Notes under the pieces: generated by a model
What the model was told of the DNA's origin: nothing
Database searches by the model: none
The model's input: the letters and a program-made list of their open reading frames with translations, nothing else
NCBI GenBank assembly: GCA_003584705.1
Contig: AP018536.1
Location: 3,906,001-3,970,000 of the forward strand
DNA: 64,000 nucleotides
Origin: Lachnospiraceae bacterium GAM79
GTDB taxonomy: Bacteria > Bacillota > Clostridia > Lachnospirales > Lachnospiraceae
Reading direction: 5' to 3'
Made by a program: the position numbers and the translations under genes
Part shown: positions 24,863 through 52,123 of the stretch, piece after piece
Layout: each line of letters starts with the position of its first letter
Position numbering within the stretch: the stretch's first letter is position 1

Positions 24863-24892
24863 CACTTTTATTCAATTACTATGTCAGATACT

Positions 24893-24961
24893 TATTCTTC
24901 TGAACCACTCTTTTTCCTTACATAGAATATGGCTCCAATAACAATCAGCATAATACAGATA
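24893..24961 (-). pseudogene. Relic of the 3' end of the giant surface-protein gene
   Basis: About 70 bases match the last codons and stop of the surface gene at 26420-26490 with two substitutions and one lost GAA codon. The stop remains in frame, so the encoded tail (membrane helix, then VRKKSGSEE) is recognisable. Homology ends abruptly at about 24961. It marks a former second copy or a duplication across the ATPase gene that lies between. Confidence 0.75.
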
Positions 24962-25053
24962 CGCCCTGATTCTTTCTCATCTTGTCTATATAATTATATT
25001 CTGTATCTCCCTCACAGAATACTGCAAACCTCTTCTGGAGGACTCTTGTTTTT

Positions 25054-26229
25054 CTACTCAAATGCCGTACCTCCCAATATTCCCTTCATATAAAACTCAT
25101 ATATCTTAGTGTTTTCATACCTCACTTCCGGAAAATCTGCTAGAGAATACAATTCTGATGTCAATTCATCTTTACTTTTTGTAATGAAATAAATCTGCTC
25201 TTTCATGTATGTCTTCAAATTTAGGTGTAATACATTATGTGTAGAAAATACAAACTGCCCTCTGTGCTCCATACCGTTAATATACGCAATAACACGGTCT
25301 GACAAGATTGGATTAAGAACCCGGTCCATCTCATCTGCAAATACCACTTTATTTTCATATACCACGCGAAATATCTGTACAGCCCATGCAAAAAATTCTC
25401 TGACACCGGTTGAATCCTGTGATAATTCTCTCTTAAACTGCTTTCCCTGTGCATTCTTACGAATTACCAGAGTTTTAGAATAAGGCTTCTCATCATCCAC
25501 TTCAATTCCGCAAATGCTGTAATCTACCATCTTAAAAATTTCTACATATCTTGGATCTTTCATAATTTCAAGATCCCGTTCCTGCCTGACAATGCTGTCT
25601 ATATTGTCAGAGGGGATATTACCCGGATATAGGACATTTAACATCCATTCAACAGTTGCTGACGCATCCTTATTTCCGAGAAGAGCCAGTTTAACTACAA
25701 ATAATCCGTTACTATTATTGCTATTCTTAAGAGCAGCTGTCACTTCCCTGGCTGTTCCTCTTTGTAATGTATATATGTTCTCCTGATCCCGTAAAATATC
25801 AAACACTACATGCTCAGCTGATTTCCGCTGGCTGCTTCTGATAAGTTTTTCGCTATAGATTCCTTTTGTATCAACAATAGTTTCATACTCATAAATATAA
25901 TGATTCCCCGCTAAGAATACTACATTAAATTTCTGTTTGGGATTATTACACTCCATCAAAGTATCTGCGTTAATATATGAATTAACAGACTGCACTTTCA
26001 TGTTTGTATCAAACAATGATTTCAGATATTTTAATCCATTTATAAAGTTGGACTTACCACCTGCGTTCTCACCTACGATAACTGCCGTTTTCAGCAAGTC
26101 GTATCCTGTTTCTGTTGTAATATAGTTATCCGGAAAGCGCTTCTTTACTTTCCCGCCTGGTGCTTCTAATGAAAACTCACACTCTTCCTTGAACGAACAA
26201 AAATTGTCAAACATATATCTTATGAGCAT
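25054..26229 (-). CDS. AAA family ATPase (AAA_15/AAA_21, OLD/RloA-like)
   Basis: The protein has 391 aa from the ATG at 26229 (GGTGGA just upstream; an upstream TTG is less likely). Walker A is GENAGGKSN near residue 50, a Walker B-like stretch is VVFADEMDRVLNP, and the sensor stretch FSTHNVLHLNL follows, with an SMC/ABC-like split core. Proteins of this group include the ATPase partners of RloAB- or AbiL-type phage-defence pairs. No second-component gene is adjacent, so it is either a solitary member or an orphaned half. It sits between the intact and relic tails of the surface-protein gene, and is more AT-rich than the block beyond 28.8 kb. Confidence 0.82.
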   Translation of the reverse strand: MLIRYMFDNFCSFKEECEFSLEAPGGKVKKRFPDNYITTETGYDLLKTAVIVGENAGGKSNFINGLKYLKSLFDTNMKVQSVNSYINADTLMECNNPKQKFNVVFLAGNHYIYEYETIVDTKGIYSEKLIRSSQRKSAEHVVFDILRDQENIYTLQRGTAREVTAALKNSNNSNGLFVVKLALLGNKDASATVEWMLNVLYPGNIPSDNIDSIVRQERDLEIMKDPRYVEIFKMVDYSICGIEVDDEKPYSKTLVIRKNAQGKQFKRELSQDSTGVREFFAWAVQIFRVVYENKVVFADEMDRVLNPILSDRVIAYINGMEHRGQFVFSTHNVLHLNLKTYMKEQIYFITKSKDELTSELYSLADFPEVRYENTKIYEFYMKGILGGTAFE

Positions 26230-26261
26230 ACTTCCACCGCCTTTCAATAATCATTATATAC

Positions 26262-26419: not shown

Positions 26420-29400
26420 TTATTCTTCTTCTGAACCACTCTTTTTTCTTACATAGAATACGGCTCCAATAACAATCAGCATAATACAGATACCTATAAT
26501 AATGATTATCGTATTATTCCATGTATATTTTGAAGTGCTGTCATCTGTCTTAGACGCAGGAATGGTTTCATCAGATTTGTTGTCTGCCTGACCGTTATCA
26601 CTCATAATCCTGGTATCAACAACAATCGTGTAATCTGATGCATGGGTAAATACAAGTTCCGCATTTCCATCCGGATCAATCTGTCCGGCACTGATAAATT
26701 CCAGTTCTCCGGTCTGTTCATTGTAGTAGAACAGGTTCGCATACAGTCCTGCATTCTTTGATTCCATGTTGACGGTCAGTGTGGCTGTAAATCCAAACTC
26801 TCCGTCATAAGCAAGCGTCAGGTTCATGGAAGAACGTTCCCCTGTCACGTTGTTGATCACATCCACAGGAATGGATTTTCCTGCATCGGCTCCGACTGTC
26901 ACATCAAAATCAATATCTCCGGCTGCATCAGTAATATCCTGTCCATTGATTTTCCAGGAAAGACCATTTCCCATGTCAAGAACAAGTGTTGTATCTTTGC
27001 CCTTGATACTGTCAATTACATCTTTCGGTACTACCGTCGTTCCGTTCATTGCAACCGTTACCGTATCGCCTGCCTTAGCTTCTTCAAGCTGTGGCTTGAT
27101 CACATCCCAGCCTTCCTTGCCGCTGTCATCCTTGATGTATGGCTTAATTGAAGTACCATTGTCCTTACCATTATCCGTATCAGGCTGTGGCTTCTGATTC
27201 TGATTACCATTGTGTGTGCCAGACTGCGGTTTCTGGTTTTGGCTGCCATTATCCTTGTTGCTGTCATCGGACTTGATCTTAGCGATCGGCTGTGTGTAAC
27301 TGTGTCCGCACTTGGAGCAGGTGTAGGTCATGATGCCTTCCTCTGTTGTCGTTGCAGCTTTGGTTACTTTTGATACATAGCTGTGTCCTGTTGCCGGAAT
27401 ATTCTCCGTGTAGCTGTCTCCACAGGAACAGGTATAAGACCTTACCCCTGCCTCTGTACAGGTTGCTTCCTTCGTAATGCTTCCCGTATAGTTGTGAGTG
27501 TGCTTTTCCTCCGGCAGCTTCGCAATGCTCTCTGTGTAGCTGCTGTTGCATCTGGTGCAGGTGTAGGTTCTGATGCCTTCCTCGGTTGTCGTTGGCTGCT
27601 TTGTTACGGTTACTTTATAATCATGTCCCAATGCTGCCAGCTCTTTTCCGGTACTCATAAGTTTATCGCAGTCCGTACAATAGGTATCTCCTGCGTATCC
27701 GGTCTGCGTGCAGGTCGCTTCCCGCTGATTCCGTATTTCAGTGTGCGTGTGATCACATTCTCTTCTTGTAATCGTAATGCTTACACTTTCTGTCTCATAA
27801 TTTCCCTTGTCAGCTCCTATATAAACCGCAGTCGCCGTCACAGCCACACCATCTGCAAGCACCGTGTCCTTATCTGCCTCCTGCCAGCTCCATCCTTCCT
27901 GAAGTGTAATATTGCCAACCTTCTTTGTGCTGTGTGCCGGTGTCATTGCAGCTTCCGGCATGTTTGGAGCTTTCGCTGCCTTATTGACCGTAACTGTTAT
28001 TGTTCTAGTTACTGTATTGTAGTTGTTTGTGTCATCAGGTGTAAATACTGCCTGATAGCCTTTGTTGTTTACAGTCGGAATGATGTTCGTTCCTGTAAAG
28101 CTCCATGTTCCGGCAAGTGAATTGCCATCTGCCCCTGTCACACTTCCGCCTGTTATATCTGAACCGGTAAGCGCAGCATCCGGATTGTATCCACGCTCTG
28201 CAACGGTTGGTACTGTTACAACTATCGGAGTTGCCTTGGCTACTGTGATGGCTGCTGTTCCGGTAAGTTCCGCGTAATACGTACTGTCTGCCGGCTTGAA
28301 TACCCAGCCCGCCTGTGTGGTTCCGGCTGCCGGTATCTCGTCCGGATTGCTCCATGAAAGAATACCTTCTATCACATCATCTGTACCGGCTTCCACAAAA
28401 ACGGTATTTCCAAGTGTCAGCTTTGAAACCTTTTCCCCATAGGTCAGCGCATTGCTTCCATCTACAGATACGGTGTTTCCGCTCTTAATCTCTACCGTCT
28501 TCTTATCTGTAATACTAATCGTCAGCGTGTATCCAGCATTCGCATAGTTCTCCATCGAAGCTGTTACCGTGATAATTGCTGTCTTTCCAACCTTGGACGC
28601 ATCTACCTGATTTACTTTATAGGTCAGATTTCCGGCTGTATCGACTGTTACCTCACTTAAAAGCTTCTCTGTATCTGTCTTTGCAACCGCATATGCTGTA
28701 GTTCCCCTATCCGTCGGAAGCTTTCCTGCAATATTCACACCGATTGCCTTACCGTCTGAACCGGAAGCATACGCATAGGTCTTATTTTCCGTGATGCTGG
28801 AAACGGTGAGTGGGCGTTTGGTAATATTTACCCAGGCGGAGCCGGAAGCATCCGCATAGCCGAACTGGGAGACCTTATAAAATACGATCTTTGGACCATT
28901 CGTGAAGTTGGTGTAGGTCAGGCTGTCCTGTGTGCAGCTATCTGCGCTTTCGCCGTATTTTACGGTTGCGCCACTGGGCACGCCGGTGAGGGTGATTCCG
29001 TGCGCCTTACCGTCATACACACCATCATAAGCCTCAGGCGAAATGCCGCTGAAGTTCTTCTGCGTGAGTTTGACCTTGATCTGCGCCGTCACAGGCATGC
29101 CGGGCTGCTCCACCTCGTTAGCAATCGAAGTAAGATCTAATGTTCCGGTGAGCGTCTGCTCCTCCAGCGTATTCGGATTATAACCGCTCCATGTGACGGG
29201 GATCTTATCAAATGTTTTGCCGTCCTCCGTGGTGATCGTCACGGTTTCGGGTAGTCCCAGCTCTTCCAGCGCCGTTCCGTAGGGCTTGTCCGTAATGCCA
29301 GTCAGCGTATGGCAGCTCTTTACCGTACGCTTGACAACCGTTACGTTATAGTCCTGAGTCAGCTCCTTGTAATTATTGGTATCTGTGGGAGTAAACACAA

Positions 29401-32400
29401 TCGTGGTGGTCTTGCTGCCTGCGCTGTCCCAAGATTTCGCAGCACCTGCCTTGAAAGCGAAGGTGCCTTCGCCGCTGCCGCCGGTGAGGGTCGCTTCACT
29501 GTTGACATAAACCGATGCAGAAAGCGTCGGCCATTCGGTCACCACCGGATTAGCCTTCTGAATGGTATACTCCACGCTGGCAGTGGCAGCCTTGTTACCC
29601 TCGCCCACCGTGATGCTGGCGGTGTACTCGCCCGCGTCGGTGGGGAGCGCGCCGTTTTCCAACATCTGTTGACCATACGTGCCCGTCTTTATGTAGCTGA
29701 TGGTGATCCCACTCGCCGCCGGACCCTGCCAATCGCTGCTTGCAGTCACCGTGGCGGGTTTGCCTTCCCCGCTGTAGGTCAGCTCGGCGGGGGCCGCAAT
29801 GGTCACGCTGCCGCCGTTTCCGTCGGTCAGATAGCAGCCCTCTGCCGTACACTTCGCGGTGATGGTCGCGCCGCTTGCCGTGTACGTCCAGCTATGCTGA
29901 TGCTGGGTCACGGTGAACGGCTCGCTGTAGCAATTGTAGCCGTTGCTGCACTGGACGTAAATGTGGTACTGATAGCTCTTGTCTACGGGCAGCCCGGAGA
30001 TCGTGAGCGTCTTGCTCTTCTCGCCGGTATGCGTTGCAGTATTAACTTTTTTGAAACTCGTGGTCCAGTCGTTTTCTGATTCGTTAAACAGCTCCCACCA
30101 GTAGTAGTAGGTGACGTTCTCCGTTTCGGGCTCGGACGCGATTACCGCAGTCAGCGTGATATTGCCGTCCGTCGCAAACGCCGAGCTTCCGGTGTAGTTC
30201 GTATCGCTATTCGGATAGATCTTTTCGACCGCGAAGGGGGCTTTTTCAACGGTGACTTTTGACGGGATTGAATTGGCGTTGGGGAGCCATTCATTATCCG
30301 TTGTTTTTTTGTAAGCGTACCCCTTCGCCAGCAGCGCGTAGGGCTTGACATAGCCGGCATCGCTCGTGATCGCGCCGTAGCTGCCGCCGCTGAGGCTGGC
30401 GCTGCTGCCGTCGTCCTTTACAGCCACACGGCTGAAGGTGCCGTTGCTCAGCGAAAGCTTTCCGCCGTTCTTCGCCGTGACAATGGCGAGCTTCGTATCC
30501 TTGTCCTTGACGGTCAATTCCGCGTCTTTGCCGTCCACCGTCACATAGAAGCCTCCGTTGCTGCCCGTGACCGTCAGAGAAATGCCCTTGGCGATGAGGT
30601 CCACACCATCGACCGTTTTCCCGCCGGTCGCCAGCGTCACCGGCCCGCGGGTCAGCTCATAGGTGGTCCGCTTCCCGTTGACAGTGTCATCCACATTCTG
30701 ATACAGCGTGATGGTCTTTGCACCGTCCGCCGCGTTCGCCGCCTCAATGGCAGTGGCAAAGGCCGTGTACCAGCTCGTCTTGTCGCCGATGGTCAGCGAC
30801 GCCGCCATCTGCTTCTTACAGACACTGCAAATGCCCTTGCCGTCCGTGCCGCCGTTGTGCGTATGCGACACGACCTTGACATTTTCCAGCGTATTCACTC
30901 TATCATTGGTCACAGCCTGATTATCACTTGCTCCGTAATACGCCGCGCCCTCCGCCAGCAGGTCGGCGAGTTTGCGGTCGCCGTTGGTTTTGATCATCGT
31001 AAATGTGCCGCCGGAGAGCTTGACTTTGGTGGTGTAAAAATCCGCGAAGGTAAACGTGCCGCCGGTGATCGTCCCCGTGACATTGTAGTCAAACGTAACG
31101 CCGCCATATTTCTTTTCATTATTAAAGCTGCCGCCGCTGATGTTCGCGATGCTGCTGCCGTTGAATTTGACATTACCAGTGAAGGTACCGCCCTTGGCGT
31201 TCAGCGTACCGTTCACCTCGACGGAGGCGTCGGTAAATGTGACGCCCTCCTTCACCGTCGCCGTGCCGTCGATGGTCGCACCTTTATAGCTGCCGCTGGC
31301 AAAGGTCACGTCCGCGTTTTTAGCGACCGTCACATTCTTGGCGGTGTGCGTTCCGCCCTTCAGCGTCAGCGTGCCGGTCAGCGGCATGGAGGTGCCGAAA
31401 GCATACATATCCCGCAGCAGGGTCAGCGTCGGCTCGGTGCAGCCCTCATTGCTCCAGCCGTTCAAGGTCTGGATGGCCTCTACATAGCCGTGTTCCAGCG
31501 CACTGTCTTCCGTGAAGTAGGCAGTCTTGGTCGTGCCGTCGGTGCTCTGGGCGGTAATTTTCGTATACAGGTCCTTGTGGCACACAGAGCACACGGGGTT
31601 GCTGTCATCGGCGCACTGATGGACGCACTCCGGGAACTGCACCTTGTACGTTGTATAGCCGGTCAAGTCCACAATTTTAGCGCTCTTATCAACGATGCTC
31701 CATGTACCGTCCTTTTCGCCGTACAGCTCGCACTTTGCATGGTTGGTTTTCAGCAGGTCTTGAACGGTGAGGCTCTTGCTCTTCGTGCTGTCCGTGATCT
31801 TGCCGATGGTGCAGGCGTTTGTATTGCCATTCCACAGCTTCAGATTGTAGCCCGTACTTGTGGAGCCAGCCGCAGCATTGCTTAATACCAACTCGCCGAT
31901 TTCGCCGCCAAAGCGCTCCAATGCGCCGCCGGCCTGCAGCTCCACGCGCGAAATCTTGCCGGTGTAGGAGTCGCCGACTGCAAGCGTTCCGTTGGAGGAA
32001 ACGTAAAACGTGACATCGAGCGCCTGCGTTCCGCCGCCTGTTCCGGAATCCTTGACCGTCAGAGTCCTGGGTTTGTTCCCACCTCCGACGCTAATGTAAT
32101 AACGCTCGCTGCTGACAGTTTTGCCATTCAGATCCAGCGTCGCTGAGTAGGTGTAAGAAGAAGAGCAATTTCCTGCGAGTGTCACATCCCGCAGCAGCGT
32201 CACGGTGTTGCCTCTGGCTGCATCAAACGCCTTCGTCAGCGTCTGATAATAGGCGCTATCGCCCACGCGCGCGTCGAATTGCGTATGGCACTTCTTGCAG
32301 GTGTAGCCGGTATCGTCCATCTCGTGCGTGCAGGGCACAAGATAGACCTTGCCGTCATCGCCCAGGCTGGTCACGCAGTCGGCGGCGTCCGCCTTGAAGT

Positions 32401-33340
32401 TCTCGGCGCTGAGCGTCACGCCGCTTGCCGGTTCGGCGATGGCCCCAAGATTTATGCCTTCACGCACGCCCACACGGATGACCGAATCCTCTCTCAATGC
32501 GCCTGATACAAGAATGGGCAGCTTCCAAGCTTCATTGGCGTAATAACCGGCCTTCACCGAGCCGGAAATAGTGAGCTCAGGAGTGTTGCTTTCCCTTCCG
32601 TCGTAGTAAACGTCATATTGAGAGTTGTCGGTAACGGTAGCATCGGTGAGGGTAATAGCGCCCTTTCCATAGATGCCGCCGCCCTCAAAGGTACTGTTGT
32701 TTCCGGTGATCGTCACATTCTCGACGGTTACCCCTCTCTCCGAATAAATGCCGCCCCCGTGGCCATAACTTGTATTCCCCGTGGCGGACGCCTTGTTGCC
32801 GGTGATCGTGGCGTTGGAGATCGAAACTGTGCCGGCGTTAAAGTGGATATAGATCCCGCCGCCGTTGCCGGCGGTCGCCTTGTTGCCGGTGATGGCTCCG
32901 CCGTCCATGGTGAAGCTGCACTTCTCACCCACATATACGCCGCCGCCACCGCCGTCAGACGCACCCGCAGTGTTATCGGAAATGGTTCCGCCATGCATGG
33001 TGAATCTTGGCGGGTCGGTCTGATTCGTCGTGCCGACAAGGAACACACCGCCGCCGCTGCCTGCTTTATTACCGGTAATCTCTCCACCATACATGGTAAA
33101 GGACGAGCCGGTCTGATAGGCGCTGCCCTTTATACCGACCTGCACGCCGCCGGTGATCGTGCCGCTGTACAGTTCAAATTTGCCGCCGTTGACGGTCACT
33201 TCGCCTTGAACCCTGCCGCTGCCGATGCAGTCGGTCAGCGTCAGCGTCGCGCCGCTGCCGATGGTGATTTTGCCGTTGATCGTCTGCCCGTTCAGGCAGA
33301 GGTTGACCTCGCCTTCTGGCACAGCCCAGCTCCCCGACAC
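26420..33340 (-). CDS. Giant surface protein, main part (downstream of a frameshift)
   Basis: This piece of about 2300 codons begins in the middle of a right-handed beta-helix region rich in GGEITGNKAGSGGGVF-type turns, resembling polymorphic pectate-lyase-like repeats. Several Cys-pair modules (CKKCHTQF, CSVCHKDL, CSVCKKQM) head further beta-helix blocks. Ig-like/MBG-type repeats follow, then three C2C2-type His/Cys modules (CDHTHTEIRN, HTHNYTGSITKEATC and their partners), and a C-terminal helix (NNTIIIIIGICIMLIVIGAVFYV) with RKKSG. There is no LPxTG. The encoding DNA is clearly GC-rich upstream of about 28.8 kb and AT-richer after it, so the gene is a mosaic. The true start is in the separate upstream piece at 33987. 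Confidence 0.8.
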   Translation of the reverse strand: MSGSWAVPEGEVNLCLNGQTINGKITIGSGATLTLTDCIGSGRVQGEVTVNGGKFELYSGTITGGVQVGIKGSAYQTGSSFTMYGGEITGNKAGSGGGVFLVGTTNQTDPPRFTMHGGTISDNTAGASDGGGGGVYVGEKCSFTMDGGAITGNKATAGNGGGIYIHFNAGTVSISNATITGNKASATGNTSYGHGGGIYSERGVTVENVTITGNNSTFEGGGIYGKGAITLTDATVTDNSQYDVYYDGRESNTPELTISGSVKAGYYANEAWKLPILVSGALREDSVIRVGVREGINLGAIAEPASGVTLSAENFKADAADCVTSLGDDGKVYLVPCTHEMDDTGYTCKKCHTQFDARVGDSAYYQTLTKAFDAARGNTVTLLRDVTLAGNCSSSYTYSATLDLNGKTVSSERYYISVGGGNKPRTLTVKDSGTGGGTQALDVTFYVSSNGTLAVGDSYTGKISRVELQAGGALERFGGEIGELVLSNAAAGSTSTGYNLKLWNGNTNACTIGKITDSTKSKSLTVQDLLKTNHAKCELYGEKDGTWSIVDKSAKIVDLTGYTTYKVQFPECVHQCADDSNPVCSVCHKDLYTKITAQSTDGTTKTAYFTEDSALEHGYVEAIQTLNGWSNEGCTEPTLTLLRDMYAFGTSMPLTGTLTLKGGTHTAKNVTVAKNADVTFASGSYKGATIDGTATVKEGVTFTDASVEVNGTLNAKGGTFTGNVKFNGSSIANISGGSFNNEKKYGGVTFDYNVTGTITGGTFTFADFYTTKVKLSGGTFTMIKTNGDRKLADLLAEGAAYYGASDNQAVTNDRVNTLENVKVVSHTHNGGTDGKGICSVCKKQMAASLTIGDKTSWYTAFATAIEAANAADGAKTITLYQNVDDTVNGKRTTYELTRGPVTLATGGKTVDGVDLIAKGISLTVTGSNGGFYVTVDGKDAELTVKDKDTKLAIVTAKNGGKLSLSNGTFSRVAVKDDGSSASLSGGSYGAITSDAGYVKPYALLAKGYAYKKTTDNEWLPNANSIPSKVTVEKAPFAVEKIYPNSDTNYTGSSAFATDGNITLTAVIASEPETENVTYYYWWELFNESENDWTTSFKKVNTATHTGEKSKTLTISGLPVDKSYQYHIYVQCSNGYNCYSEPFTVTQHQHSWTYTASGATITAKCTAEGCYLTDGNGGSVTIAAPAELTYSGEGKPATVTASSDWQGPAASGITISYIKTGTYGQQMLENGALPTDAGEYTASITVGEGNKAATASVEYTIQKANPVVTEWPTLSASVYVNSEATLTGGSGEGTFAFKAGAAKSWDSAGSKTTTIVFTPTDTNNYKELTQDYNVTVVKRTVKSCHTLTGITDKPYGTALEELGLPETVTITTEDGKTFDKIPVTWSGYNPNTLEEQTLTGTLDLTSIANEVEQPGMPVTAQIKVKLTQKNFSGISPEAYDGVYDGKAHGITLTGVPSGATVKYGESADSCTQDSLTYTNFTNGPKIVFYKVSQFGYADASGSAWVNITKRPLTVSSITENKTYAYASGSDGKAIGVNIAGKLPTDRGTTAYAVAKTDTEKLLSEVTVDTAGNLTYKVNQVDASKVGKTAIITVTASMENYANAGYTLTISITDKKTVEIKSGNTVSVDGSNALTYGEKVSKLTLGNTVFVEAGTDDVIEGILSWSNPDEIPAAGTTQAGWVFKPADSTYYAELTGTAAITVAKATPIVVTVPTVAERGYNPDAALTGSDITGGSVTGADGNSLAGTWSFTGTNIIPTVNNKGYQAVFTPDDTNNYNTVTRTITVTVNKAAKAPNMPEAAMTPAHSTKKVGNITLQEGWSWQEADKDTVLADGVAVTATAVYIGADKGNYETESVSITITRRECDHTHTEIRNQREATCTQTGYAGDTYCTDCDKLMSTGKELAALGHDYKVTVTKQPTTTEEGIRTYTCTRCNSSYTESIAKLPEEKHTHNYTGSITKEATCTEAGVRSYTCSCGDSYTENIPATGHSYVSKVTKAATTTEEGIMTYTCSKCGHSYTQPIAKIKSDDSNKDNGSQNQKPQSGTHNGNQNQKPQPDTDNGKDNGTSIKPYIKDDSGKEGWDVIKPQLEEAKAGDTVTVAMNGTTVVPKDVIDSIKGKDTTLVLDMGNGLSWKINGQDITDAAGDIDFDVTVGADAGKSIPVDVINNVTGERSSMNLTLAYDGEFGFTATLTVNMESKNAGLYANLFYYNEQTGELEFISAGQIDPDGNAELVFTHASDYTIVVDTRIMSDNGQADNKSDETIPASKTDDSTSKYTWNNTIIIIIGICIMLIVIGAVFYVRKKSGSEEE

Positions 33341-33348: not shown

Positions 33349-33987
33349 TCAGATAATAGCTGCCCGCAGAATTAGGCAGGGAATCGGCTGCCGTCCATGC
33401 TGTGCTGTTGTTATGGGTATGACCGTTGTACCGCTGTCCTTGCCGCAGACACAGTGGGTATGCTCGCCGGACTGTGCGTCCGCCAACAGCGCGGTCTGGC
33501 TGTTGAACCAGCCGAGCAGCGCCTCGAAGTCTGCGCCGGTGATCTGCGCCTGCTGCTCTGCGTTCAGTGCTTCATAAGCATCATACGCCGCCTGAATGTC
33601 GTCATAAGCTGCGTCCAGCTCGTCGGCGGTCATGCCGTCCAACTCACTCACGATGGGCAGCGCATCGATCATCGTCTGCACAGCGGATACCGCCGCGTCC
33701 GCATTGTTCCCGGCGTTTTCATCCTCGCCGCTCTCCGGCGCATCTGCTTTACTGTCCTCAGCGCCACCGGCGTCAGGGGTACCGGTATTTTGCGGGTCAC
33801 CCTCTGAACCGTTCTCTTCCTCATTCGTTCCAGCCTGTTCGGATACGGCGGGCGAAATTTCCTCCTGCCGCTCCTGCTGCACGATGGCGCCGCTCTCCGG
33901 CGTATCCTCCGCCGCTCGCACGGGTGCGGGCAGGAGCGTCAGACACAGCGCCAGCGCCATGAACATACTCAATACTCGTTTTTTCAT
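33349..33987 (-). CDS. Giant surface protein, N-terminal part (upstream of the frameshift)
   Basis: The start ATG at 33987 has AAAGGAG six bases ahead. The product begins with a Sec signal peptide (KKRVLSMFMALALCLTLLPAPVRA), an acidic Gly/Glu/Asp linker, then a helical FIVAR-like module (SAVQTMIDALPIVSELDGMT and onward) and a Cys motif, HTHCVCGKDSG. Near 33400-33420 the frame is lost: after GTTVI the frame used here runs about 22 codons to a stop, while the other frame continues as HNNSTAWTAADSLPNSAGSY into the main part. A net two-base insertion or one-base loss explains it. It is downstream of a LuxR-type gene on the same strand. Confidence 0.8.
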   Translation of the reverse strand: MKKRVLSMFMALALCLTLLPAPVRAAEDTPESGAIVQQERQEEISPAVSEQAGTNEEENGSEGDPQNTGTPDAGGAEDSKADAPESGEDENAGNNADAAVSAVQTMIDALPIVSELDGMTADELDAAYDDIQAAYDAYEALNAEQQAQITGADFEALLGWFNSQTALLADAQSGEHTHCVCGKDSGTTVIPITTAQHGRQPIPCLILRAAII

Positions 33988-34052
33988 AAGATTCTCCTTT
34001 AGGATATATGTATAAGGTTTATATTCAGCCCGTTCAAGCACAGGCTCAGCTT

Positions 34053-36416
34053 TTATAGATCATCCGGAATGAGCCACAGCTTTTTTGCGGCTGTCCTGGC
34101 TTCCGCCCGGCGCTTCACGTCCAGCTTGTCGAGAATGTGGCTGACGTGGGTCTTCACCGTGGGCAGCTTCACGTCCATGATCTGCGCAATCTCGGCGTTG
34201 GACTTGTCCGCGCAGATGAGATGCAGAATTTGTAGCTCCGTGGGCGTCAGCTCCTCGCCGGGGGCAAGGCGGGGTTCGAGGAAATGCGGGTAGAACGCCG
34301 CCTGCATCCGCACCGCCGCCATTAACTGCTTATACCACTTTTTGTCGCCATCCCATTCCAGTGCCCCCAGCAGCGGCAGCACTGCCGTGCCGTATACGCT
34401 GACGGTGCGGATGAATCGGTACTCTGCCGCCGCGCCCAGCGCCGCCGTCAATCGCTCGCGCCACCGCTCATCCTTCTTGCGGCGCAGGGCGATGGCAGTC
34501 AGGACATTCAGGTGAATGCCGTCGATGATGCGGGCGCAGTTTTGAATGTACGGCTCCATGGGTGAGAGCGTCAGCAAAGCGGCGTCCGGGCGGTTCTGCA
34601 TAATTTCCACCATTGCCTGCGTGAGATACTGGTAGCGCCGCATGACATTCAGGTGCGTTGGTTCGCAAGGGGCTTTTTCCCGGTACCACGCATCCGCCGC
34701 ATCAAGGTCGCCGGTGTGCATGTCAATACGGCAGAGCATGGCGTCCATATTGGGCAGAAAGCGAGTCAAACCGCGCTCGACAAAGCATTCATGGAGCACC
34801 TCGATGGTGCGCCGCGCGTCGGTGGGCTGCCCGTTTGCCAGCTGGCTGCGGGCCAGCAATCCGCTGACGGCGAACTCCATGTCCGACGTGCCGTGGTTGC
34901 GGACCTCGTTCATCTGCGGGAGAAGGGACAGCATCCGGCCGGCGACGTCCTCGCCCTTTTCAAACTTGCTCTCGGCAATGGCGCAGTCGGCAAGACACAC
35001 ACTGTCCCGCCCCAGTACTGCCTCCACGGGGAGACGGAGGGTTTTGTAGAGCAGGTCGTCCTTTTTGCTCCATTCGGAAAAGTCCTTGCCACCGTTCATG
35101 ATGCTCGGCAGCGCGCTCGTGACGGAGAAGGACGGCAGCGCCACCTCTTTGTTCGTCAGAAGCCGGAACACGGCGGGGATGGTTTCCGTCAGACCCTTCA
35201 CGCCCCGCTGGGGCAGGGAGATGTCCAGCCATGCAAGGCGGCCGCGCGCCTGCTTTCCGGCGGCGTCCTGCCTGCCGCAGTGTTCGACAAACTTTTGCAG
35301 TTCGCCATACCAGCGCTCCGAGCCTTCGTAATCCATGACCAGCGCGCAGAGCATGCTCATGCCCTGCATCAGAGAGGGGGATGCGAGAATTTCCGCCTCC
35401 GGCAGGCTGCGGTAGTATTTTTCCATCTCGGCATAGTGCCCCATGCCGGGGTGAAGTTCTGCATTACGCACTAGCAGCTCGGAAACCTTGGAATGGTCAC
35501 CGCCGCTGGTGTAGCATTCTAGGGCGTGGGCGTAGTCTTCCTTCAGCTCATAGTACAGCCCGCCCCGGCCGATGAGCGCTTTGCGCTTTTCCTCGGTATA
35601 CTCCCGTTCCATCTCCCAAAGGAGAAAAGCCCGGAAACCCGACCAGAAGTGGAAGCGCTGGCAGTCGTCGTAGCGCAGCATAGTAGTGTATCGAAAAATC
35701 CAGTCCAGCCGTTCGCCGGCACGGGGATCACCGCTGACCATCCGCGCCATTTCCAGGTCAAAACTTTCAAAGGGGGCTAGCTCCAACAAGAAGCGCCGCA
35801 CCGGCAGGTCAAAGCGCCGGTAGATGGCGGTCTCAAAGTAGAGGAACACCTCGTAGAACACCCGCGCCACCAGCTCCGGCGTCCACGGCTTGTCCGGGGA
35901 CATGCACCGCGCCGTGATGGCCACACCCAACGGATAGCCCACGGATTCTTTCAAAATTCCATCAATCTCGCTATCTGTTACGTTTACTCCCGAAAGCTGA
36001 AACAGCCGCCGCACATCGCCCTCATCAAAAAGCAGGTCGTCGGCCTCCAGCACTGTCATCAGCCCCGTATACTGAAACGCCGTCAGGCAGCCGGGCGGCA
36101 CACCGCGCGAGAGCAGCACAAAACGGCGCTCCGGACTTGAGCGAATCAGTTCGCAAAGAGCCTGCTGCCCGGCTTCCTCCTGCATGAACTGAAGATCGTC
36201 AATCAGCAGAATGTCCCAATCCTGCGCTGACGGTGGGATTGCGCAGTCTGGGTCTGCTGCACTTTGCCGCAGCACGTTCCGACCGCGCAGCAGTGCGTCC
36301 GCCAGTACTGTCTTTCCAAAGCCGCAGGGTGCGCTGAAAAAAAGGACTCTGCCATGCGCCATGAAGCTGTCAAACCGTTTCTGAACGGAGGTCTTTATGA
36401 TAATATTTTTGGTCAT
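34053..36416 (-). CDS. LuxR-family ATP-dependent regulator (MalT/LAL-like)
   Basis: The protein has about 787 aa from the ATG at 36416 (GGGAGG upstream). An N-terminal NTPase domain has a P-loop, SAPCGFGKTVLAD near residue 30, and a Walker B, ILLIDDLQFM. A long helical TPR-like region follows (about 200-710). The C-terminus is a LuxR HTH: LTPTELQILHLICADKSNAEIAQIMDVKLPTVKTHVSHILDKL. Such signal-transduction ATPases activate transcription when they bind an inducer. It is 65 bases upstream of the giant surface gene on the same strand and probably controls it. It shares the high GC of the neighbouring surface gene, unlike the ATPase genes beyond 36.7 kb. Confidence 0.88.
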   Translation of the reverse strand: MTKNIIIKTSVQKRFDSFMAHGRVLFFSAPCGFGKTVLADALLRGRNVLRQSAADPDCAIPPSAQDWDILLIDDLQFMQEEAGQQALCELIRSSPERRFVLLSRGVPPGCLTAFQYTGLMTVLEADDLLFDEGDVRRLFQLSGVNVTDSEIDGILKESVGYPLGVAITARCMSPDKPWTPELVARVFYEVFLYFETAIYRRFDLPVRRFLLELAPFESFDLEMARMVSGDPRAGERLDWIFRYTTMLRYDDCQRFHFWSGFRAFLLWEMEREYTEEKRKALIGRGGLYYELKEDYAHALECYTSGGDHSKVSELLVRNAELHPGMGHYAEMEKYYRSLPEAEILASPSLMQGMSMLCALVMDYEGSERWYGELQKFVEHCGRQDAAGKQARGRLAWLDISLPQRGVKGLTETIPAVFRLLTNKEVALPSFSVTSALPSIMNGGKDFSEWSKKDDLLYKTLRLPVEAVLGRDSVCLADCAIAESKFEKGEDVAGRMLSLLPQMNEVRNHGTSDMEFAVSGLLARSQLANGQPTDARRTIEVLHECFVERGLTRFLPNMDAMLCRIDMHTGDLDAADAWYREKAPCEPTHLNVMRRYQYLTQAMVEIMQNRPDAALLTLSPMEPYIQNCARIIDGIHLNVLTAIALRRKKDERWRERLTAALGAAAEYRFIRTVSVYGTAVLPLLGALEWDGDKKWYKQLMAAVRMQAAFYPHFLEPRLAPGEELTPTELQILHLICADKSNAEIAQIMDVKLPTVKTHVSHILDKLDVKRRAEARTAAKKLWLIPDDL

Positions 36417-36530
36417 TTCTTTCCTCCCTTTGATACAGAGCGAGATTGCCATAAGTCTTTCGTAATCTGTCTCGAATTATATTATACGAGTCTGTTTCGA
36501 AATGTAAATCATCCCAAAGGATGAGACACG

Positions 36531-36740: not shown

Positions 36741-37937
36741 TTATTCTTGTAGCAGCCAATCGGCTATATCATGGATTTCGATTCCTTCATAGCTATATTT
36801 TGGATGTTTGGTTCTGGCAATAATCATTTTCGGATAAGCATCTCGGATCTGAAGCAGAGGAGAGCATTCTCTCTCAAATGTTTCCTGCCCGGAAATGTTG
36901 TCGCTGACCTGAATATAAATCTTCTCGCTGCCTCTCTGAGCAACAAAGTCGATCTCCTTTTGATAGAGCTTGCCGACATAGACATCGTATCCACGGCGAA
37001 GAAATTCAATGCAAACAATATTTTCATATACTCTGCCGTAATCCATATTTCTGCTTCCCAGTATTGCATATCGAATACCACTGTCACACAAATAGAACTT
37101 TTCAGAGCTTTCAAGGTATTTCTTGCCTCGGATGTCGTATCTCTTAATATCATAAAATACAAAAGCATTGCACAAATACTTAATGTACTTGCCGACGGTT
37201 ACATGATTGGTTGGAGTCTCATTTGCTGTCAGCAGCTGACTGACCCTATTAGGAGACGTCAGGTTGCTGATATTATCCATAAGGAACTCGCTCAGACGTT
37301 GTAAAACCAAAGAGTCCGGGAGCGCATATTTTTGCACCAAATCCCTTGTAACAATCGTTTCGTAGACCTCTTTGATATAGTTTGTTCTGTCTTTTTCGGT
37401 TCTGTAAGCGTAAGAACCTGCTAAACCGCCCTTGATAGCGTAATCATCAAAGAGCTTATCTTTATCACTAACATCATCATAATATTGGCAATATTCCTGG
37501 AAGCTGAAAGGAAACACATGAATTTCAATATAGCGTCCGGTAAACAGAGTTGCCAGATCCGCACTCAACAGGAAAGCATTGGAGCCGGTTACATAGATGT
37601 CATATTTTCCCTTAGAGTACAGGCTGTTGATTGCCAACTCAAACTTGGGACACATCTGAACCTCGTCTACAAACAGGTAGTTCGTTTTACTTTCCTGATA
37701 ATGTTCTTCCACATAAGCGTGTAAGGCATGGTATTCCTTGATTTCTTCATACACCAAATCCATGAAGTCAATGAAGATAATATTGATATTTTCAAAATGG
37801 CTTTTCAGATACTCAATATACGCCTGCATCAGCTTGGACTTACCGGATCGACGAATGCCCGTGATAATCTTGATGTCAGGAGTACCATTCAGTTCAATGA
37901 TTCTGTCGAGATACTTTGCTCTTGTAATTGTTTTCAT
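36741..37937 (-). CDS. AAA_14-DUF4143 ATP-binding protein, copy 1
   Basis: The protein has 398 aa from the ATG at 37937 (GTGGGTGACGAT upstream). Walker A is GIRRSGKSKLM near residue 30, Walker B YLFVDEVQ, and the sensor VTGSNAFLLSADLATLFTGRYIEIHVFPFSFQEY. These are the AAA_14 hallmarks. The C-terminal DUF4143 domain is nuclease-like (GYDVYVGKLYQKEIDFVAQRG: the G-x-E-I-D-F-V motif recalls a PD-(D/E)XK core). The family is common in gut clostridia and its role is unsettled; proposals include toxin-like or DNA-processing functions. A paralogue follows upstream at 38230. Confidence 0.85.
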   Translation of the reverse strand: MKTITRAKYLDRIIELNGTPDIKIITGIRRSGKSKLMQAYIEYLKSHFENINIIFIDFMDLVYEEIKEYHALHAYVEEHYQESKTNYLFVDEVQMCPKFELAINSLYSKGKYDIYVTGSNAFLLSADLATLFTGRYIEIHVFPFSFQEYCQYYDDVSDKDKLFDDYAIKGGLAGSYAYRTEKDRTNYIKEVYETIVTRDLVQKYALPDSLVLQRLSEFLMDNISNLTSPNRVSQLLTANETPTNHVTVGKYIKYLCNAFVFYDIKRYDIRGKKYLESSEKFYLCDSGIRYAILGSRNMDYGRVYENIVCIEFLRRGYDVYVGKLYQKEIDFVAQRGSEKIYIQVSDNISGQETFERECSPLLQIRDAYPKMIIARTKHPKYSYEGIEIHDIADWLLQE

Positions 37938-38011
37938 ATCGTCACCCACTTTCAAAAATCGAATATTTTTCATTTTTTGAAACTGCTTCGATGTATTTAT
38001 TATACTGTCTG

Positions 38012-38200
38012 CTAATAGTATGTGCAAGACGTCGCTTTCAAAAACTCAATCAGAGTACTCAGACATTCTTTGCCATTGTTTTCTCCTTCTCTGTTCTGAA
38101 TTGCCATGCGTATCATCCTCTCAAATGACTCGCTGAAATGTTCATCATCTTCTGGCGTCCGTTTCTTTGGCCCTTTTATATGATTTTTTCCAGAAGCCAC
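38012..38200 (-). CDS. Doubtful short reading frame between the two AAA_14 genes
   Basis: The frame has 62 codons starting with GTG, is highly charged (GPKKRTPEDDEHFSESFER), and overlaps nothing essential. No good ribosome binding site precedes it and I recognise no family. It may be a relic or a small partner of the flanking ATPases. I list it because the charged composition is unlike a random AT-rich frame. Confidence 0.25.
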   Translation of the reverse strand: MASGKNHIKGPKKRTPEDDEHFSESFERMIRMAIQNREGENNGKECLSTLIEFLKATSCTYY

Positions 38201-38228
38201 AATTTTAAATTTTTTCTTAATTTGTGGC
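38196..38228. repeat. Palindrome flanking the second AAA_14 gene, downstream copy
   Basis: GCCACAA at the left pairs with TTGTGGC at the right around an A/T-rich centre. It is closely similar to the palindrome at 39488-39522 on the other side of the gene. It ends two bases before the gene stop, so it may act as its terminator. Confidence 0.6.
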
Positions 38229-38229
38229 G

Positions 38230-39453
38230 TTATGATAAATTAATATCCTTCTTACCCAAAAGAAAATCAACAATATTGATATGTGCAATTCCATTTCTTG
38301 AATAATCAAATCTATCTAATGAAAACACATATTTCGGTGATGCATCACTAATTGGCTTAAAAGCACCAAACTCTCTTTCAATCGTTTCCTTGCCAGCCAA
38401 ATAATATGCCACCTGAATAAAACATTTCTTTCTTCCATTTATTGCAACAAAATCAATTTCACCCTTATATGTTTTTCCTGTAAAGACTTCATAATCTCTT
38501 GCTTTTAGCTCGTTATAAATTATATTTTCAAGAAAAAAGGTATCCTCAAAATTTACTAAGTTTGTATTTATCATGCGAAAACCAGTATCTACCGCATATT
38601 GCTTCTCTATATACGACATTGCCTGTTTTCCTACAATATTAAATCTTTTTACACGATCAATTAGACAAGCCTTTTCCATTTTATCAAGATATCTGTATAT
38701 CGTCTTTTTATCCAAAGTATCTGCATTTTGATGTATAAAATAGTTCTCTATATTTTTACTGGAAAATTCCTTTCCTGCATTTGCCATAATATATGTTGCT
38801 ACTCTTTCAAAGTTTTGTCTATTAACCTTTGATCTGTCAGTAATAATATCCTTATCTAAGATACCTTCATATGTCTGCTCCAAATATCTCTTAATATCAC
38901 TTTCTTTTGTAAACGAAAAACGCAAAGGGAAGCCACCCCAATTGATATAATCAATCATAAACTCATCCGGAGATATATTTCTTCCTATAGCTGTAGCATA
39001 TTCGTAGCTTTCGGCAAAGGAAAATGGCATTATTCTAAATTCAACACATCTTCCAACCAACAATGTTGCCATCTTGCCGGATAGCAATTTCGAATTACTT
39101 CCAGTAATAAAAATTGAGCAATTTAATGTTGCCCGAAAGGAAGCTAAAACCTTTTCAAAGCTCCTGACATGCTGAATCTCATCTAAAAAAATCAAGTATT
39201 TGTCATGATCCTTGATTTGCTCATTCACATAGGAATTAAGTTTTTCTGCAGTTCTTATTTTTTCAAATTGCAAATCTTCAAAATTAATGGTAATAATATG
39301 CGCTCTATCAAACCCATTTTCAATAAATTCTTCTTTAATCTGCTCTAACAATATAGATTTTCCACATCTTCTAACACCTGTCAGAACCTTAATTAAATCC
39401 ACATCATAAAATGGTCTTATTTTGCTTAGATATCTTTCACGCTTTATATACAT
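38230..39453 (-). CDS. AAA_14-DUF4143 ATP-binding protein, copy 2
   Basis: The protein has 407 aa and is markedly AT-rich. Walker A is GVRRCGKSILLEQI near residue 26, Walker B LIFLDEIQH, the sensor ITGSNSKLLSGKMATLLVGRCVEFRIMPFSFAESYEYA, and the C-terminal DUF4143 element VFTGKTYKGEIDFVAINGRKKCFIQVAYYL holds a nuclease-like E-x-D-x-V core. The start has GGAGATGATGTT ahead. It is paralogous to the 36741-37937 gene but far enough in sequence to be a separate acquisition rather than a tandem duplication. Nearly identical palindromes bracket it. Confidence 0.85.
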   Translation of the reverse strand: MYIKRERYLSKIRPFYDVDLIKVLTGVRRCGKSILLEQIKEEFIENGFDRAHIITINFEDLQFEKIRTAEKLNSYVNEQIKDHDKYLIFLDEIQHVRSFEKVLASFRATLNCSIFITGSNSKLLSGKMATLLVGRCVEFRIMPFSFAESYEYATAIGRNISPDEFMIDYINWGGFPLRFSFTKESDIKRYLEQTYEGILDKDIITDRSKVNRQNFERVATYIMANAGKEFSSKNIENYFIHQNADTLDKKTIYRYLDKMEKACLIDRVKRFNIVGKQAMSYIEKQYAVDTGFRMINTNLVNFEDTFFLENIIYNELKARDYEVFTGKTYKGEIDFVAINGRKKCFIQVAYYLAGKETIEREFGAFKPISDASPKYVFSLDRFDYSRNGIAHINIVDFLLGKKDINLS

Positions 39454-40213: not shown

Positions 40214-41038
40214 TTAGGGCATTTCAGGACTATCCACAAGGGATACGCTGAACTCCTGTGCGGTTGCGCCCTCCGGCAGCAGCTTTGCCATGACCACCAG
40301 CCGCTGATTACCGCTGTTGGCCTTGTCATACTTCCGGCAGCAGGTGGAGAGGGTCAGAACAGTATCTTCCTCGGAGAAAGTCACGCCATCAAAGTCAAGC
40401 CAGTTTTTCCGCGCAATCGTCTCAAAGAAGCTGGTCAGATCATCTCCCGTGGGATCAGGCTCAATATAGTCAAAGCCAATATCCGTGACGAACAGCGCGG
40501 TGATCTGGAAAATCATGTCCTCACCATCCACAGAGAGATAGATATACGGATGCTCCTTTACAAAGTCTACGTCCATATAACGGTAGAGCTTGGTGAACCG
40601 CACACCGTCCGGGTCGCAGTTGCTGGCGGAGTGGCCGAAAATGGTGGTGTTTTTGTCCAGCTTATCCCTGCCGCCGATTTTGTTTTCACAATGGGCATAA
40701 TAGCAGCCCCACATGGCGTACTCACCGTTTTCATCCAGCTTTAGGTAATAGCCGTTGTCCTCCGCCTGCATCACAGGGTCGTCCACCTCCGCACCTGGGA
40801 TATACAGCCATGCCACGGTGTCGGGATTCTTCGCTCTGGCTTCCGCCAACTCTGTCTGCCTGTCCACCGAGGGGATAACTTCGCCCGCGAGAGGCGCTGA
40901 TGGCTGAGGCGCAGATGTGCCGGGAATGTCGATAGGCTCTGTCTCTCTCTGATAGCAGCCCCTGACTGCCGTGGTCATAGCAACGAGAAGGACAACTATG
41001 CAGATGATCGGACGAATGATTCTTGTGATTCTTTTCAT
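40214..41038 (-). CDS. srtB: Class B sortase
   Basis: The protein has 274 aa from the ATG at 41038 (AAGGAG eight bases upstream). An N-terminal membrane helix (PIICIVVLLVAMTTAV) is followed by the sortase barrel: WLYIPGAEVDDPVMQ, YYLKLDENGEY, the catalytic His in TIFGHSASN, the Cys in LTLSTCC and the Arg in NQRLVVMAKLL. It joins surface proteins with NPQTN-like signals to the wall or to pili. It follows the giant surface gene by 46 bases on the same strand. That protein contains an NPQTG near its end but no membrane tail, so the substrate is uncertain. The gene lies in the GC-rich block. Confidence 0.9.
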   Translation of the reverse strand: MKRITRIIRPIICIVVLLVAMTTAVRGCYQRETEPIDIPGTSAPQPSAPLAGEVIPSVDRQTELAEARAKNPDTVAWLYIPGAEVDDPVMQAEDNGYYLKLDENGEYAMWGCYYAHCENKIGGRDKLDKNTTIFGHSASNCDPDGVRFTKLYRYMDVDFVKEHPYIYLSVDGEDMIFQITALFVTDIGFDYIEPDPTGDDLTSFFETIARKNWLDFDGVTFSEEDTVLTLSTCCRKYDKANSGNQRLVVMAKLLPEGATAQEFSVSLVDSPEMP

Positions 41039-41084
41039 AATGCTATCTCCTTGCCGCGCTTGGATAGCGGCGCAGCTCAAAATG

Positions 41085-50670: not shown

Positions 50671-51993
50671 TTATTTCAATAGTTCAGGCTTCAGACAGAT
50701 TTCATCGGGTGGGACGATCTCCAGTCCAAGCTTTTCCATTGCATTTTTGTCAAATGACTTCAGGGCCTTCTTCATGGGTGTCGAACCATGAAGTTTAGGC
50801 CTTGTTGTATTATTGATGTGATTTACCATACGTAACACCTGCTCCTGGTTCAATCCATCAAATGAACTTCCCTTTGGCAGTACATATCTTATGTACTCAT
50901 GATTCTTTTCCAGTTCTCCCTTTTGCTCAGAATGTCTCGATTCACAATAAAACACTCTGGTACGCTTCTTTCCGTCATGTCCTTTTTCAAACAACTCCGG
51001 ATCTGCAAACTCACATCCATTATCTGTCAGTATTACAGGAAACAGTTCCCGAAACATTTCACTTCCCAACGTCTCTTCCAACCATTCAAAAGCAGCTACG
51101 GTATTCTTCATTTCTTTGGTTTCAATCAGAAATGCCAGCATCAGATTGTTTCCCGGCCATAACAGCGTATGAAGTAATTTTCCGCCTTTATTTCCTTCCA
51201 CTGTGTCCATCTGTACCACTCGTATGCCTTCGTTTTTCGCAATAAAATCAAGATAGTCTGAATAATGATGTCCTTCTTTTTTACGATAGCTGATTTTGGG
51301 AGTTGGAACGCTTCTCACTCTTTTTCGATATCTTACCGTTCTCCGCATATCCAGATTTCTTGCGGTCAGATAGCCGGCACTGATATACTTATAAAGCGTT
51401 CGTTCCCCACAGGGAATCTCTTCTGCATGATGCGCCAGGATATGTGCCAGGGGCTGTCCTTTCCTGATCAGCGGGCTCACAAGACTGTCCAATGCTGCCA
51501 GTTCATCTCTGGTCATGTCTATTCCCTGTCTGGATTTCCTAAGCGTTTCACAGTACTCCTTATGGGCATAATCAGCGTTATACAGGTACTTATCAAACAG
51601 ACAGCTGATGGACTTGGGGCAGTTATTGCACACATAAGGCGCCTTGTGTTCTATTGGGCATGGTGCATCCACAAAGTCAGGACACAGCTTATTACAGCTG
51701 ATACACTCCCGGCATGGAATTCTGCACTTATGTCCCTTCTTCTTTTTACACACATCCCAACGCCTGCAGCTATTTCGGTATTTACACCGGTTGGGACTTG
51801 CATGAAGTATGCCATCCCTGCTTCGCAACTTATGATAACGATGCCTGCGTATTTCCTTGGAAACCGTATCAGGTGAACAGCCTATAATGTATGCAATCTC
51901 TTTAAAGGTACGATGTTCTTTCAATCCCTTCTGAATTTCATGCCTGTCATCCCAAGTTAAATGTGTCCCCTTTTTCCTTTCTTCTTTCGGCAT
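50671..51993 (-). CDS. IS30-family transposase
   Basis: The protein has 440 aa and appears complete. The N-terminal HTH (HLTWDDRHEIQKGLKEHRTFKEIAYIIGCSPDTVSKEIRRHRYH) binds the IS ends. A cysteine-rich middle (CRECISCNKLCPDF and CNNCPKS) follows. The DDE core is QMDTVEG, ILTDNGCEF and QKGELEKNHEYIRYVLPKGSSFDGL. The ATG is preceded by a GGAGG-type stretch. It lies between the GC-rich surface block and decayed integrase relics, so it may have helped rearrange this region. Confidence 0.92.
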   Translation of the reverse strand: MPKEERKKGTHLTWDDRHEIQKGLKEHRTFKEIAYIIGCSPDTVSKEIRRHRYHKLRSRDGILHASPNRCKYRNSCRRWDVCKKKKGHKCRIPCRECISCNKLCPDFVDAPCPIEHKAPYVCNNCPKSISCLFDKYLYNADYAHKEYCETLRKSRQGIDMTRDELAALDSLVSPLIRKGQPLAHILAHHAEEIPCGERTLYKYISAGYLTARNLDMRRTVRYRKRVRSVPTPKISYRKKEGHHYSDYLDFIAKNEGIRVVQMDTVEGNKGGKLLHTLLWPGNNLMLAFLIETKEMKNTVAAFEWLEETLGSEMFRELFPVILTDNGCEFADPELFEKGHDGKKRTRVFYCESRHSEQKGELEKNHEYIRYVLPKGSSFDGLNQEQVLRMVNHINNTTRPKLHGSTPMKKALKSFDKNAMEKLGLEIVPPDEICLKPELLK

Positions 51994-52032
51994 AGGACCT
52001 CCTTCTGCAGGAGGATACCTATTCAGTATACC

Positions 52033-52058: not shown

Positions 52059-52123
52059 TACCCAAATCAGATTTTTAAAATTCATTCAACGAATTTTTCA
52101 AAAAAGTTTTTTCACAAGAAACG

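What the first reader, a model, noticed from the sequence alone, without database searches (positions are those of the whole stretch)
28600..29000. Base-composition break inside one giant surface gene
Reading along the gene, the DNA from about 28.8 kb to its start is strongly GC-rich with C/G third positions, while the last 2.4 kb is AT-richer like the surrounding genome. The encoded repeats are of the same type on both sides. This looks like homologous recombination that swapped the N-terminal two thirds with a copy from a GC-rich donor.
Basis: seen in the sequence. Interest (0 to 1): 0.6.

Follow-up and report, generated by a model that had tools for sequence, protein, structure and literature searches.

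The report
Surface gene fused from two families
A giant cell-surface gene in a Clostridia genome looks like a true chimera: its regulator and front two thirds are closest to those of a different bacterial family, while its back third, with the predicted membrane anchor, is closest to the host's own family.

Summary
The break is real. In gene 26420-33340(-) third-position GC drops from 0.73 to 0.44 at codon 1503 (window ~28831; gain 89.9 log units, at most 10.4 in 500 shuffles; 3.5-24.9 in 12 related giant genes). Synonymous codons alone, with models from other genes, give codon 1517 (window 28790). The nearest lineage changes at the same place: residues 1-1185 best match a genome of Pseudoflavonifractor's family (73% over 1-698); the tail best matches the host's own family (58% over 1863-2302), the leading tail hits beginning at 1491-1518. 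The GC-rich tract also holds the upstream LuxR/MalT-type regulator (92% in Hominifimenecus, 85% in Pseudoflavonifractor, 81% in Gemmiger), which nests among mostly Oscillospiraceae regulators. A chimera is supported; homologous exchange, a swap and its direction are not shown. Neither parent was found. Some own-family genes hold weak relatives of both halves in the same order, so the layout exists on both sides. Tail copies at two other places in this genome leave direction open. Regulator plus giant ORF is a recurring pair; 3 of 4 loci checked have conjugation or recombinase genes nearby. As assembled, the signal-peptide ORF is in another frame than the main ORF, so present function is uncertain.

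The parts
28790..33340 (-). GC-rich N-terminal two thirds of the giant surface gene (codons 1-1517), closest to Pseudoflavonifractor's family
   Evidence: GC3 0.73; best hit G571, 73% over residues 1-698, 56% over 1-1185; residues 1186-1503 assigned mainly by composition
26420..28789 (-). AT-richer C-terminal third with predicted membrane-anchor tail, closest to the host's own family
   Evidence: GC3 0.44; best hits G1113, G1087, G1126 in own family
28736..28909 (-). joint between the two halves, in a short linker between repeat units
   Evidence: union of GC3 change-point interval and synonymous-codon interval; leading own-family hits start at residues 1491-1518
33349..34041 (-). ORF holding the signal peptide (ATG about 33987, read by eye) and first part of the surface protein; its frame differs from that of the main ORF
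   Evidence: the relative G571 reads the matching region in one frame
34053..36452 (-). LuxR/MalT-type regulator P0003, GC-rich, in a mostly Oscillospiraceae branch
   Evidence: Pfam TPR_MalT and GerE; 92/85/81% relatives; tree
40214..41140 (-). sortase, class B-like (below that model's cut-off); 86.8% DNA identity over 40103-41123 to the region after the Hominifimenecus surface gene
41085..49991 (-). second GC-rich giant surface gene P0002, ending abruptly inside an SLH-like motif (by eye)
24892..24962 (-). 71-base duplicate (96%) of the 3' end of the surface gene
25054..26247 (-). AAA_21 ATPase gene between the two copies of the 3' end
36741..39453 (-). two AT-rich AAA_14/DUF4143 genes (36741-38027 and 38230-39453) between the GC-rich blocks
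50671..52783 (-). HTH_38 protein (50671-51993, transposase-like by reading) and phage-integrase fragment (52178-52783) at the right edge of the GC-rich block

Best explanation
The gene is an in-frame fusion of two related but distinct regulator-plus-giant-surface-protein modules. Regulator, signal peptide and the first ~1,500 residues are closest to an Oscillospiraceae type; the last ~790 residues, with the predicted membrane anchor, are closest to the host's own family. The joint lies in a short linker ('VxIxK...') between repeat units, and a similar linker precedes the same unit in own-family proteins. Shown: the composition step, the change of nearest lineage at the same place, the regulator's placement, and the recurrence of regulator plus giant ORF. 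Inferred: the modules met in one cell because such pairs can travel with conjugative elements, and the joint arose there by recombination or a deletion fusion. Inferred effect: the cell would display a foreign head, under the regulator that came with it, on a tail of its own family's type. As assembled, the frame change between the signal-peptide ORF and the main ORF would prevent export, unless it is a sequencing error.
For: Single large step, reproduced with synonymous codons only; 89.9 against at most 24.9 in 12 related genes. Front: 994.9 bits in the family of Pseudoflavonifractor MSJ-37 (370 genomes; blastp 1157 bits), against at most 106 bits by blastp for front-only stretches of the own-genome and own-family genes compared. 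Tail: 514.1 bits in another own-family genome (368 genomes) against 156.9 in the other family. blastp alignments to G336, G1087 and G1126 start at residues 1495, 1504, 1516 and 1518. The regulator forms a starred 4-row clade with Hominifimenecus, Pseudoflavonifractor MSJ-37 and Gemmiger inside a 23-row branch (14 Oscillospiraceae, 2 Lachnospiraceae, 2 of other families, 5 unassigned; SH-aLRT 100; quick tree of 34 of the 80 loci plus window). DNA homology to these three species covers the regulator and stops at 33925-33928, about codon 20 of the signal peptide. In MSJ-37 the gene at that place still matches the front in protein (46% over 11-238, 47% over 1145-1324). An ORF of at least 600 aa follows the regulator within 600 bp in 38 of 66 usable loci (14 of 80 skipped; some are not evident surface proteins), against 16 of 285 own-genome ORFs. 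In L177, L180, L190, L193, L196 and L205 the gene behind the regulator carries the window gene's tail. Conjugation or serine-recombinase genes in 3 of 4 loci checked, 8 neighbours picked by eye.
Against: Neither parent was found, so the joint cannot be seen at DNA level. Front-type repeats are not foreign as such: own-genome L029 matches residues 4-232 at 38% (106 bits), and own-family G823 and G948 hold both a front-type stretch (32%, 29%) and a tail-type stretch in one gene of low to middling GC3 in the same order. Own-family proteins also align across the joint at low identity (G336, G823, G976, G1010, G993, 32-38%), and the unit at 1436-1500 has its best class-level hit in own-family G146 (51%). 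G571 does not cover 1186-1503. The tail is not exclusive to the own family (46-48% in the other), nor always AT-rich there (G1087 GC3 0.60-0.69). Match GC overlaps: median 0.55 for the front (24 loci) and 0.51 for the tail (109 loci), loci redundant. The MSJ-37 locus (54.8% GC) is itself poorer than that genome's sample (61.3%), so it need not be native there and the donor genus is unknown. The wider pair control is weaker: 92 of 456 for all ORFs of the 80 loci, regulators included. L139's one scanned neighbour gave a peptidase only.
Confidence: 0.82

Rival explanations
1. Island insertion plus deletion: a GC-rich mobile block (about 28.8-50.3 kb, later split by two AT-rich ATPase genes) integrated beside a resident surface gene, and a deletion fused its surface gene to the resident tail. 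A chimera, but not a homologous swap.
For: GC-rich DNA extends far beyond the gene; transposase-like and integrase genes at the right edge; regulators of the two types share only ~30% protein identity, too little for ordinary homologous exchange there; some relatives of the pair lie beside conjugation or recombinase genes.
Against: The joint is in frame and between repeat units, which an unselected deletion would rarely give; own-family genes of the same head-tail order exist, so exchange between like genes is possible; no insertion-site repeats or empty site were tested in a relative. (Odds lowered from 0.40 to 0.35.)
Confidence: 0.35
2. The tail is the incomer: a GC-rich gene was resident or arrived first, and the AT-rich anchor segment, which is copied around this genome, was captured by it.
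For: The 3' end is present three times: in the gene, as a 71-base 96% copy at 24892-24962, and as a 733-base 95.5% plus 80-base 89% copy at 1.308 Mb with an internal deletion.
Against: The copies may be remnants of other own-family genes; the AT-rich genes on the tail side suggest that the tail belongs to its surroundings.
Confidence: 0.25
3. Assembly chimera: two different genes were joined by mistake.
For: The frame change between the signal-peptide ORF and the main ORF shows that the local sequence may contain errors.
Against: One-contig genome, 99.99% complete; the joint is in frame within an open frame of 2,383 codons and lies between repeat units.
Confidence: 0.05
4. No recombination: one gene whose base composition differs because of repeat type, codon selection or expression.
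For: Repeat types differ between the halves; mild steps occur in 7 of 12 related giant genes; own-family genes with both kinds of stretch exist.
Against: The step appears with synonymous codons alone, is 3.6 times the largest of the 12, and coincides with a change of best-hit family.
Confidence: 0.03

Closest known systems
Mosaic surface-protein genes made by interspecies recombination (for example in pneumococcus and its commensal relatives; PMC4404416 and PMC6456647 seen only as search listings with the start of the abstract)
   Same: A surface gene built of segments with different ancestry, joined in frame (general knowledge).
   Different: Here the nearest lineages of the halves are two bacterial families, the tract includes the gene's regulator, and no parent with high DNA identity is known.
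MalT-type LuxR regulators (PF17874, PF00196; NCBIfam PRK04841)
   Same: P0003 has the MalT-like TPR region and LuxR-type DNA-binding end.
   Different: It scores far below the MalT equivalog cut-off (109.2 of 537 bits) and is paired with a giant surface gene; that MalT proper serves maltose genes is recalled.
Sortase- or SLH-anchored giant surface proteins of gut Clostridia (recalled class)
   Same: Signal peptide, long repeat region, anchoring tail; by eye, relatives here end in SLH repeats (L133, L274) or a membrane tail followed by a relative of the window's sortase (L129).
   Different: The window gene's tail matched no curated anchor at its cut-off (LPXTG model 12.7 of 15.9 bits), and its head and tail have different nearest families.

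Membership tests
Mosaic gene from inter-lineage recombination | abrupt change of composition inside one reading frame | tested here: met
   control
Mosaic gene from inter-lineage recombination | the segments have different closest lineages | tested here: met
   regulator tree; weak relatives of both halves also in the own family
Mosaic gene from inter-lineage recombination | parental sequences or near-parents known for each segment | tested here: not met
   best protein identities outside this genome 73% (front, over 1-698) and 58-59% (tail); own-genome tail copies 94-96%
Homologous-recombination replacement | shared DNA between donor and recipient at both ends of the tract | tested here: inconclusive
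   a similar linker at protein level only; the far end near 36.55 kb was seen only against L129
MalT equivalog (PRK04841) | score at or above the curated cut-off | tested here: not met
   109.2 bits against 537
MalT-like LuxR regulators in the broad sense | TPR_MalT plus GerE domains above Pfam cut-offs | tested here: met
LPXTG-anchored surface protein | C-terminal LPXTG anchor domain above cut-off | tested here: not met
   12.7 of 15.9 bits

The most novel reading that the evidence does not exclude
A mobile surface-display module shared across families of gut Clostridia: a constant MalT-type regulator plus signal peptide, behind which the displayed head changes and is grafted onto tails that suit each host's envelope (SLH repeats, sortase-linked tail, or the own-family membrane tail seen here). 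The window gene would be one such graft caught in DNA, with its regulator transferred alongside.
Probability: 0.3. Interest if true: 0.65.

Novelty: new variant of a known kind. Interest (0 to 1): 0.5.

Why it matters
If right, giant surface proteins of Clostridia can be exchanged between families below the level of the gene, with head, tail and regulator as separable parts. It gives a handle for asking whether tails are kept to match the host envelope while heads are traded, and it warns that whole-gene trees and best hits of such proteins can mix two histories.

Tried and rejected
Whole-protein scan of genome contigs (close relatives only; near-identical records may be left out): 30 pattern matches, none a relative. 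Phage and plasmid records with window 28700-36600: no match. tRNA as an integration site: none found in the window; Rfam at gathering gave only Clostridiales-1 RNA. A strict linker motif outside the window gene: no hit in the loci then held. Structure of residues 1425-1640, to see whether the joint lies between folded domains: single-sequence model, mean pLDDT 33.7, not usable. P0002 in 12 genomes: 5 with matches, and the listed matches lie in its last ~270 residues, so no relative of its front was listed in those 12. A near-repeat of about 20 bases at ~28.77 and ~28.86 kb was seen by eye and set aside: both copies are present, so it is no simple crossover scar. Literature listings showed no title on this module; no paper was opened. 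One search listed 3 papers naming Hominifimenecus, not read.

Full report
What was claimed.

The break. The gene (ORF 26420-33340, 2,306 aa) has one change-point in third-position GC: codon 1503, window 28831, 0.73 before and 0.44 after, gain 89.9 log units, at most 10.4 in 500 shuffles; 2-unit interval 28762-28909. To remove amino-acid effects I scored synonymous codons with a GC-rich model from P0002 and P0003 of the window and an AT-rich model from a relative (G1113) and two neighbouring genes: maximum at codon 1517, window 28790, 28736-28835 within 2 units. The genome sample (322 mechanical ORFs of at least 200 aa, 26 stretches of 20 kb; pairs overlapping by 12 kb and 1 kb; six stretches picked around surface-gene copies and the window's flanks) has median GC3 0.553 and maximum 0.72. 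The front lies above all of them, the tail below the lower quartile (0.498) but within range. As a control, the same split on 12 related giant genes gave gains of 3.5-24.9, and 7 of 12 exceeded their own 60 shuffles: mild steps are usual in such genes, a step of 89.9 is not.

Extent. GC-rich DNA runs past the gene start through the signal-peptide ORF (GC3 0.65) and the LuxR/MalT-type regulator (0.75) to 36.45 kb. A second GC-rich block holds a sortase gene and a 2,968-aa surface protein (40.2-50.3 kb). Two AT-rich AAA_14/DUF4143 genes lie between.

Lineage of the two halves. In 370 genomes of the family of Pseudoflavonifractor MSJ-37 (G449) the best hit of the whole protein is to its front: G571, 73% over residues 1-698, 994.9 bits, continuing to 1185 at 41%; 56% over 1-1185 by tblastn and blastp. 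In 368 own-family genomes the best hits outside this genome are to the tail: G1113 58% over 1863-2302 (514.1 bits), with G1087 and G1126 covering from about 1500 onward. The leading tail alignments start at residues 1491-1518, the place of the composition step. Class-wide, 40 of 391 genomes matched the front and 110 of 391 the tail, own genome counted in both. Listings are cut, and only about two candidates per genome were scored in these larger searches, so absences are not proof. The host's family name is told by no call; Lachnospiraceae is inferred from titles of loci that carry the tail (four of the six listed below).

What does not fit neatly. Several own-family proteins align across the joint at 32-38%, and the unit at 1436-1500 has its best class-level hit in own-family G146. 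On checking, own-family G823 and G948 carry a front-type stretch (residues 5-332 at 32%; 5-328 at 29%) and a tail-type stretch (1506-1788; 1779-1941) in one gene in the same order, at low to middling GC3, and L029 of this genome matches 4-232 at 38%. So the head-tail layout is not new to the own family; what is foreign-looking is this particular front (73% relative elsewhere, GC3 0.73, with its regulator). This makes exchange between two genes of like layout easier to picture, and I lowered the insertion-plus-deletion rival from 0.40 to 0.35 for it. Own-family tails are not always AT-rich (G1087).

The regulator. A scan of one genome per species (best 80 of 234 kept) found P0003 relatives at 92% in Hominifimenecus microfluidus (Lachnospiraceae), 85% in Pseudoflavonifractor MSJ-37 and 81% in Gemmiger formicilis (both Oscillospiraceae). 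In a quick tree of 35 rows (34 of the 80 loci plus the window; SH-aLRT only; six rows of unusual make-up) P0003 and Hominifimenecus nest in a mostly Oscillospiraceae branch of 23 rows; regulators of the six loci below sit on the other side of the midpoint root, where 2 Oscillospiraceae rows also lie. Samples: own genome 47.1% GC (400 kb), Hominifimenecus 48.7% (20 kb, short contigs), MSJ-37 61.3%, G571 54.2% (60 kb each). The MSJ-37 locus is 54.8%, below its genome, so the module may be a guest there too and the donor genus stays unknown.

A recurring pair. DNA homology between the window and these three species covers the regulator and stops at 33925-33928, about codon 20 of the signal peptide. 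The giant genes that follow differ, though the MSJ-37 one still matches the window's front in protein (46% over 11-238, 47% over 1145-1324). Of the 80 loci, 66 had enough downstream DNA and 38 of these have an ORF of at least 600 aa starting within 600 bp, some not evident surface proteins; the same rule gives 16 of 285 in the own-genome sample and 92 of 456 for all ORFs of the 80 loci, regulators included. In L177, L180, L190, L193, L196 and L205 the gene behind a more distant regulator carries the window gene's tail. Neighbours picked by eye in four loci (8 proteins, one without a match): L133 TraG P-loop, NlpC/P60 and serine recombinase; L177 MobL and coupling protein; L190 serine recombinase; L139 a peptidase only. 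Among the window genes scanned no conjugation gene appeared; an HTH_38 protein and an integrase fragment lie at the right edge.

The tail is duplicated. A 71-base, 96% copy of the gene's 3' end lies at 24892-24962 beyond an AAA_21 ATPase gene, and a 733-base 95.5% plus 80-base 89% copy with an internal deletion lies at 1.308 Mb. This keeps open that the tail, not the front, was the moving part. The own genome gave no other match to an own-family-type regulator (L190's) at E up to 0.001; one search counted a second match of P0003 in this genome that does not appear in the rows shown.

Frame. The signal-peptide ORF (33349-34041) and the main ORF are in different frames; G571 reads the matching region in one frame. 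Whether this is a sequencing error or a real break cannot be told here. If real, the protein is not exported as assembled.

Verdict. The chimera is well supported (I give it about 0.82 with the reading above, nearer 0.9 for the bare fact). Its mechanism is open between exchange at a shared linker and island insertion with a deletion fusion, and its direction is open too. Mosaic surface genes are a known kind; the cross-family scale and the inclusion of the regulator make this a variant worth following.

Noticed in passing
window 24892-26493: The last 71 bases of the surface gene are repeated beyond an AAA_21 ATPase gene; a reading frame after the ATPase appears cut short there (by eye), as if a second surface gene had stood there and been deleted.
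   Followed up: partly
L028 10370-11209 (G000:C1 about 1.308 Mb): Decayed second copy of the tail, 95.5% identical over 733 bases plus 80 bases at 89%, lacking about 825 bases in between relative to the window gene.
   Followed up: partly
window 33349-33440: Frame change between the signal-peptide ORF and the main ORF of the surface gene.
   Followed up: partly
window 41085-41203: The 2,968-aa surface protein ends inside what reads as a first SLH repeat, where homology to the Hominifimenecus sortase region begins: a second possible mosaic joint.
   Followed up: partly
window 36741-39453: Two AT-rich AAA_14/DUF4143 genes (GC3 0.45 and 0.25) sit between the two GC-rich blocks.
   Followed up: no
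window 21851-22018: Clostridiales-1 RNA (Rfam RF01699, 139.3 bits) on the plus strand.
   Followed up: no
L133 3363-7627 and 20271-21989: In Pseudoflavonifractor MSJ-37 the regulator and surface gene lie between conjugation-like genes and a large serine recombinase.
   Followed up: partly
L133 12457-18849 and L274 8754-15356: Milder composition steps inside two other giant surface genes (gains 24.9 and 18.0 log units), possible further mosaics.
   Followed up: no
window 49988-50317: Small GC-rich ORF of unknown nature directly upstream of the 2,968-aa surface gene, at the right edge of the GC-rich block.
   Followed up: no
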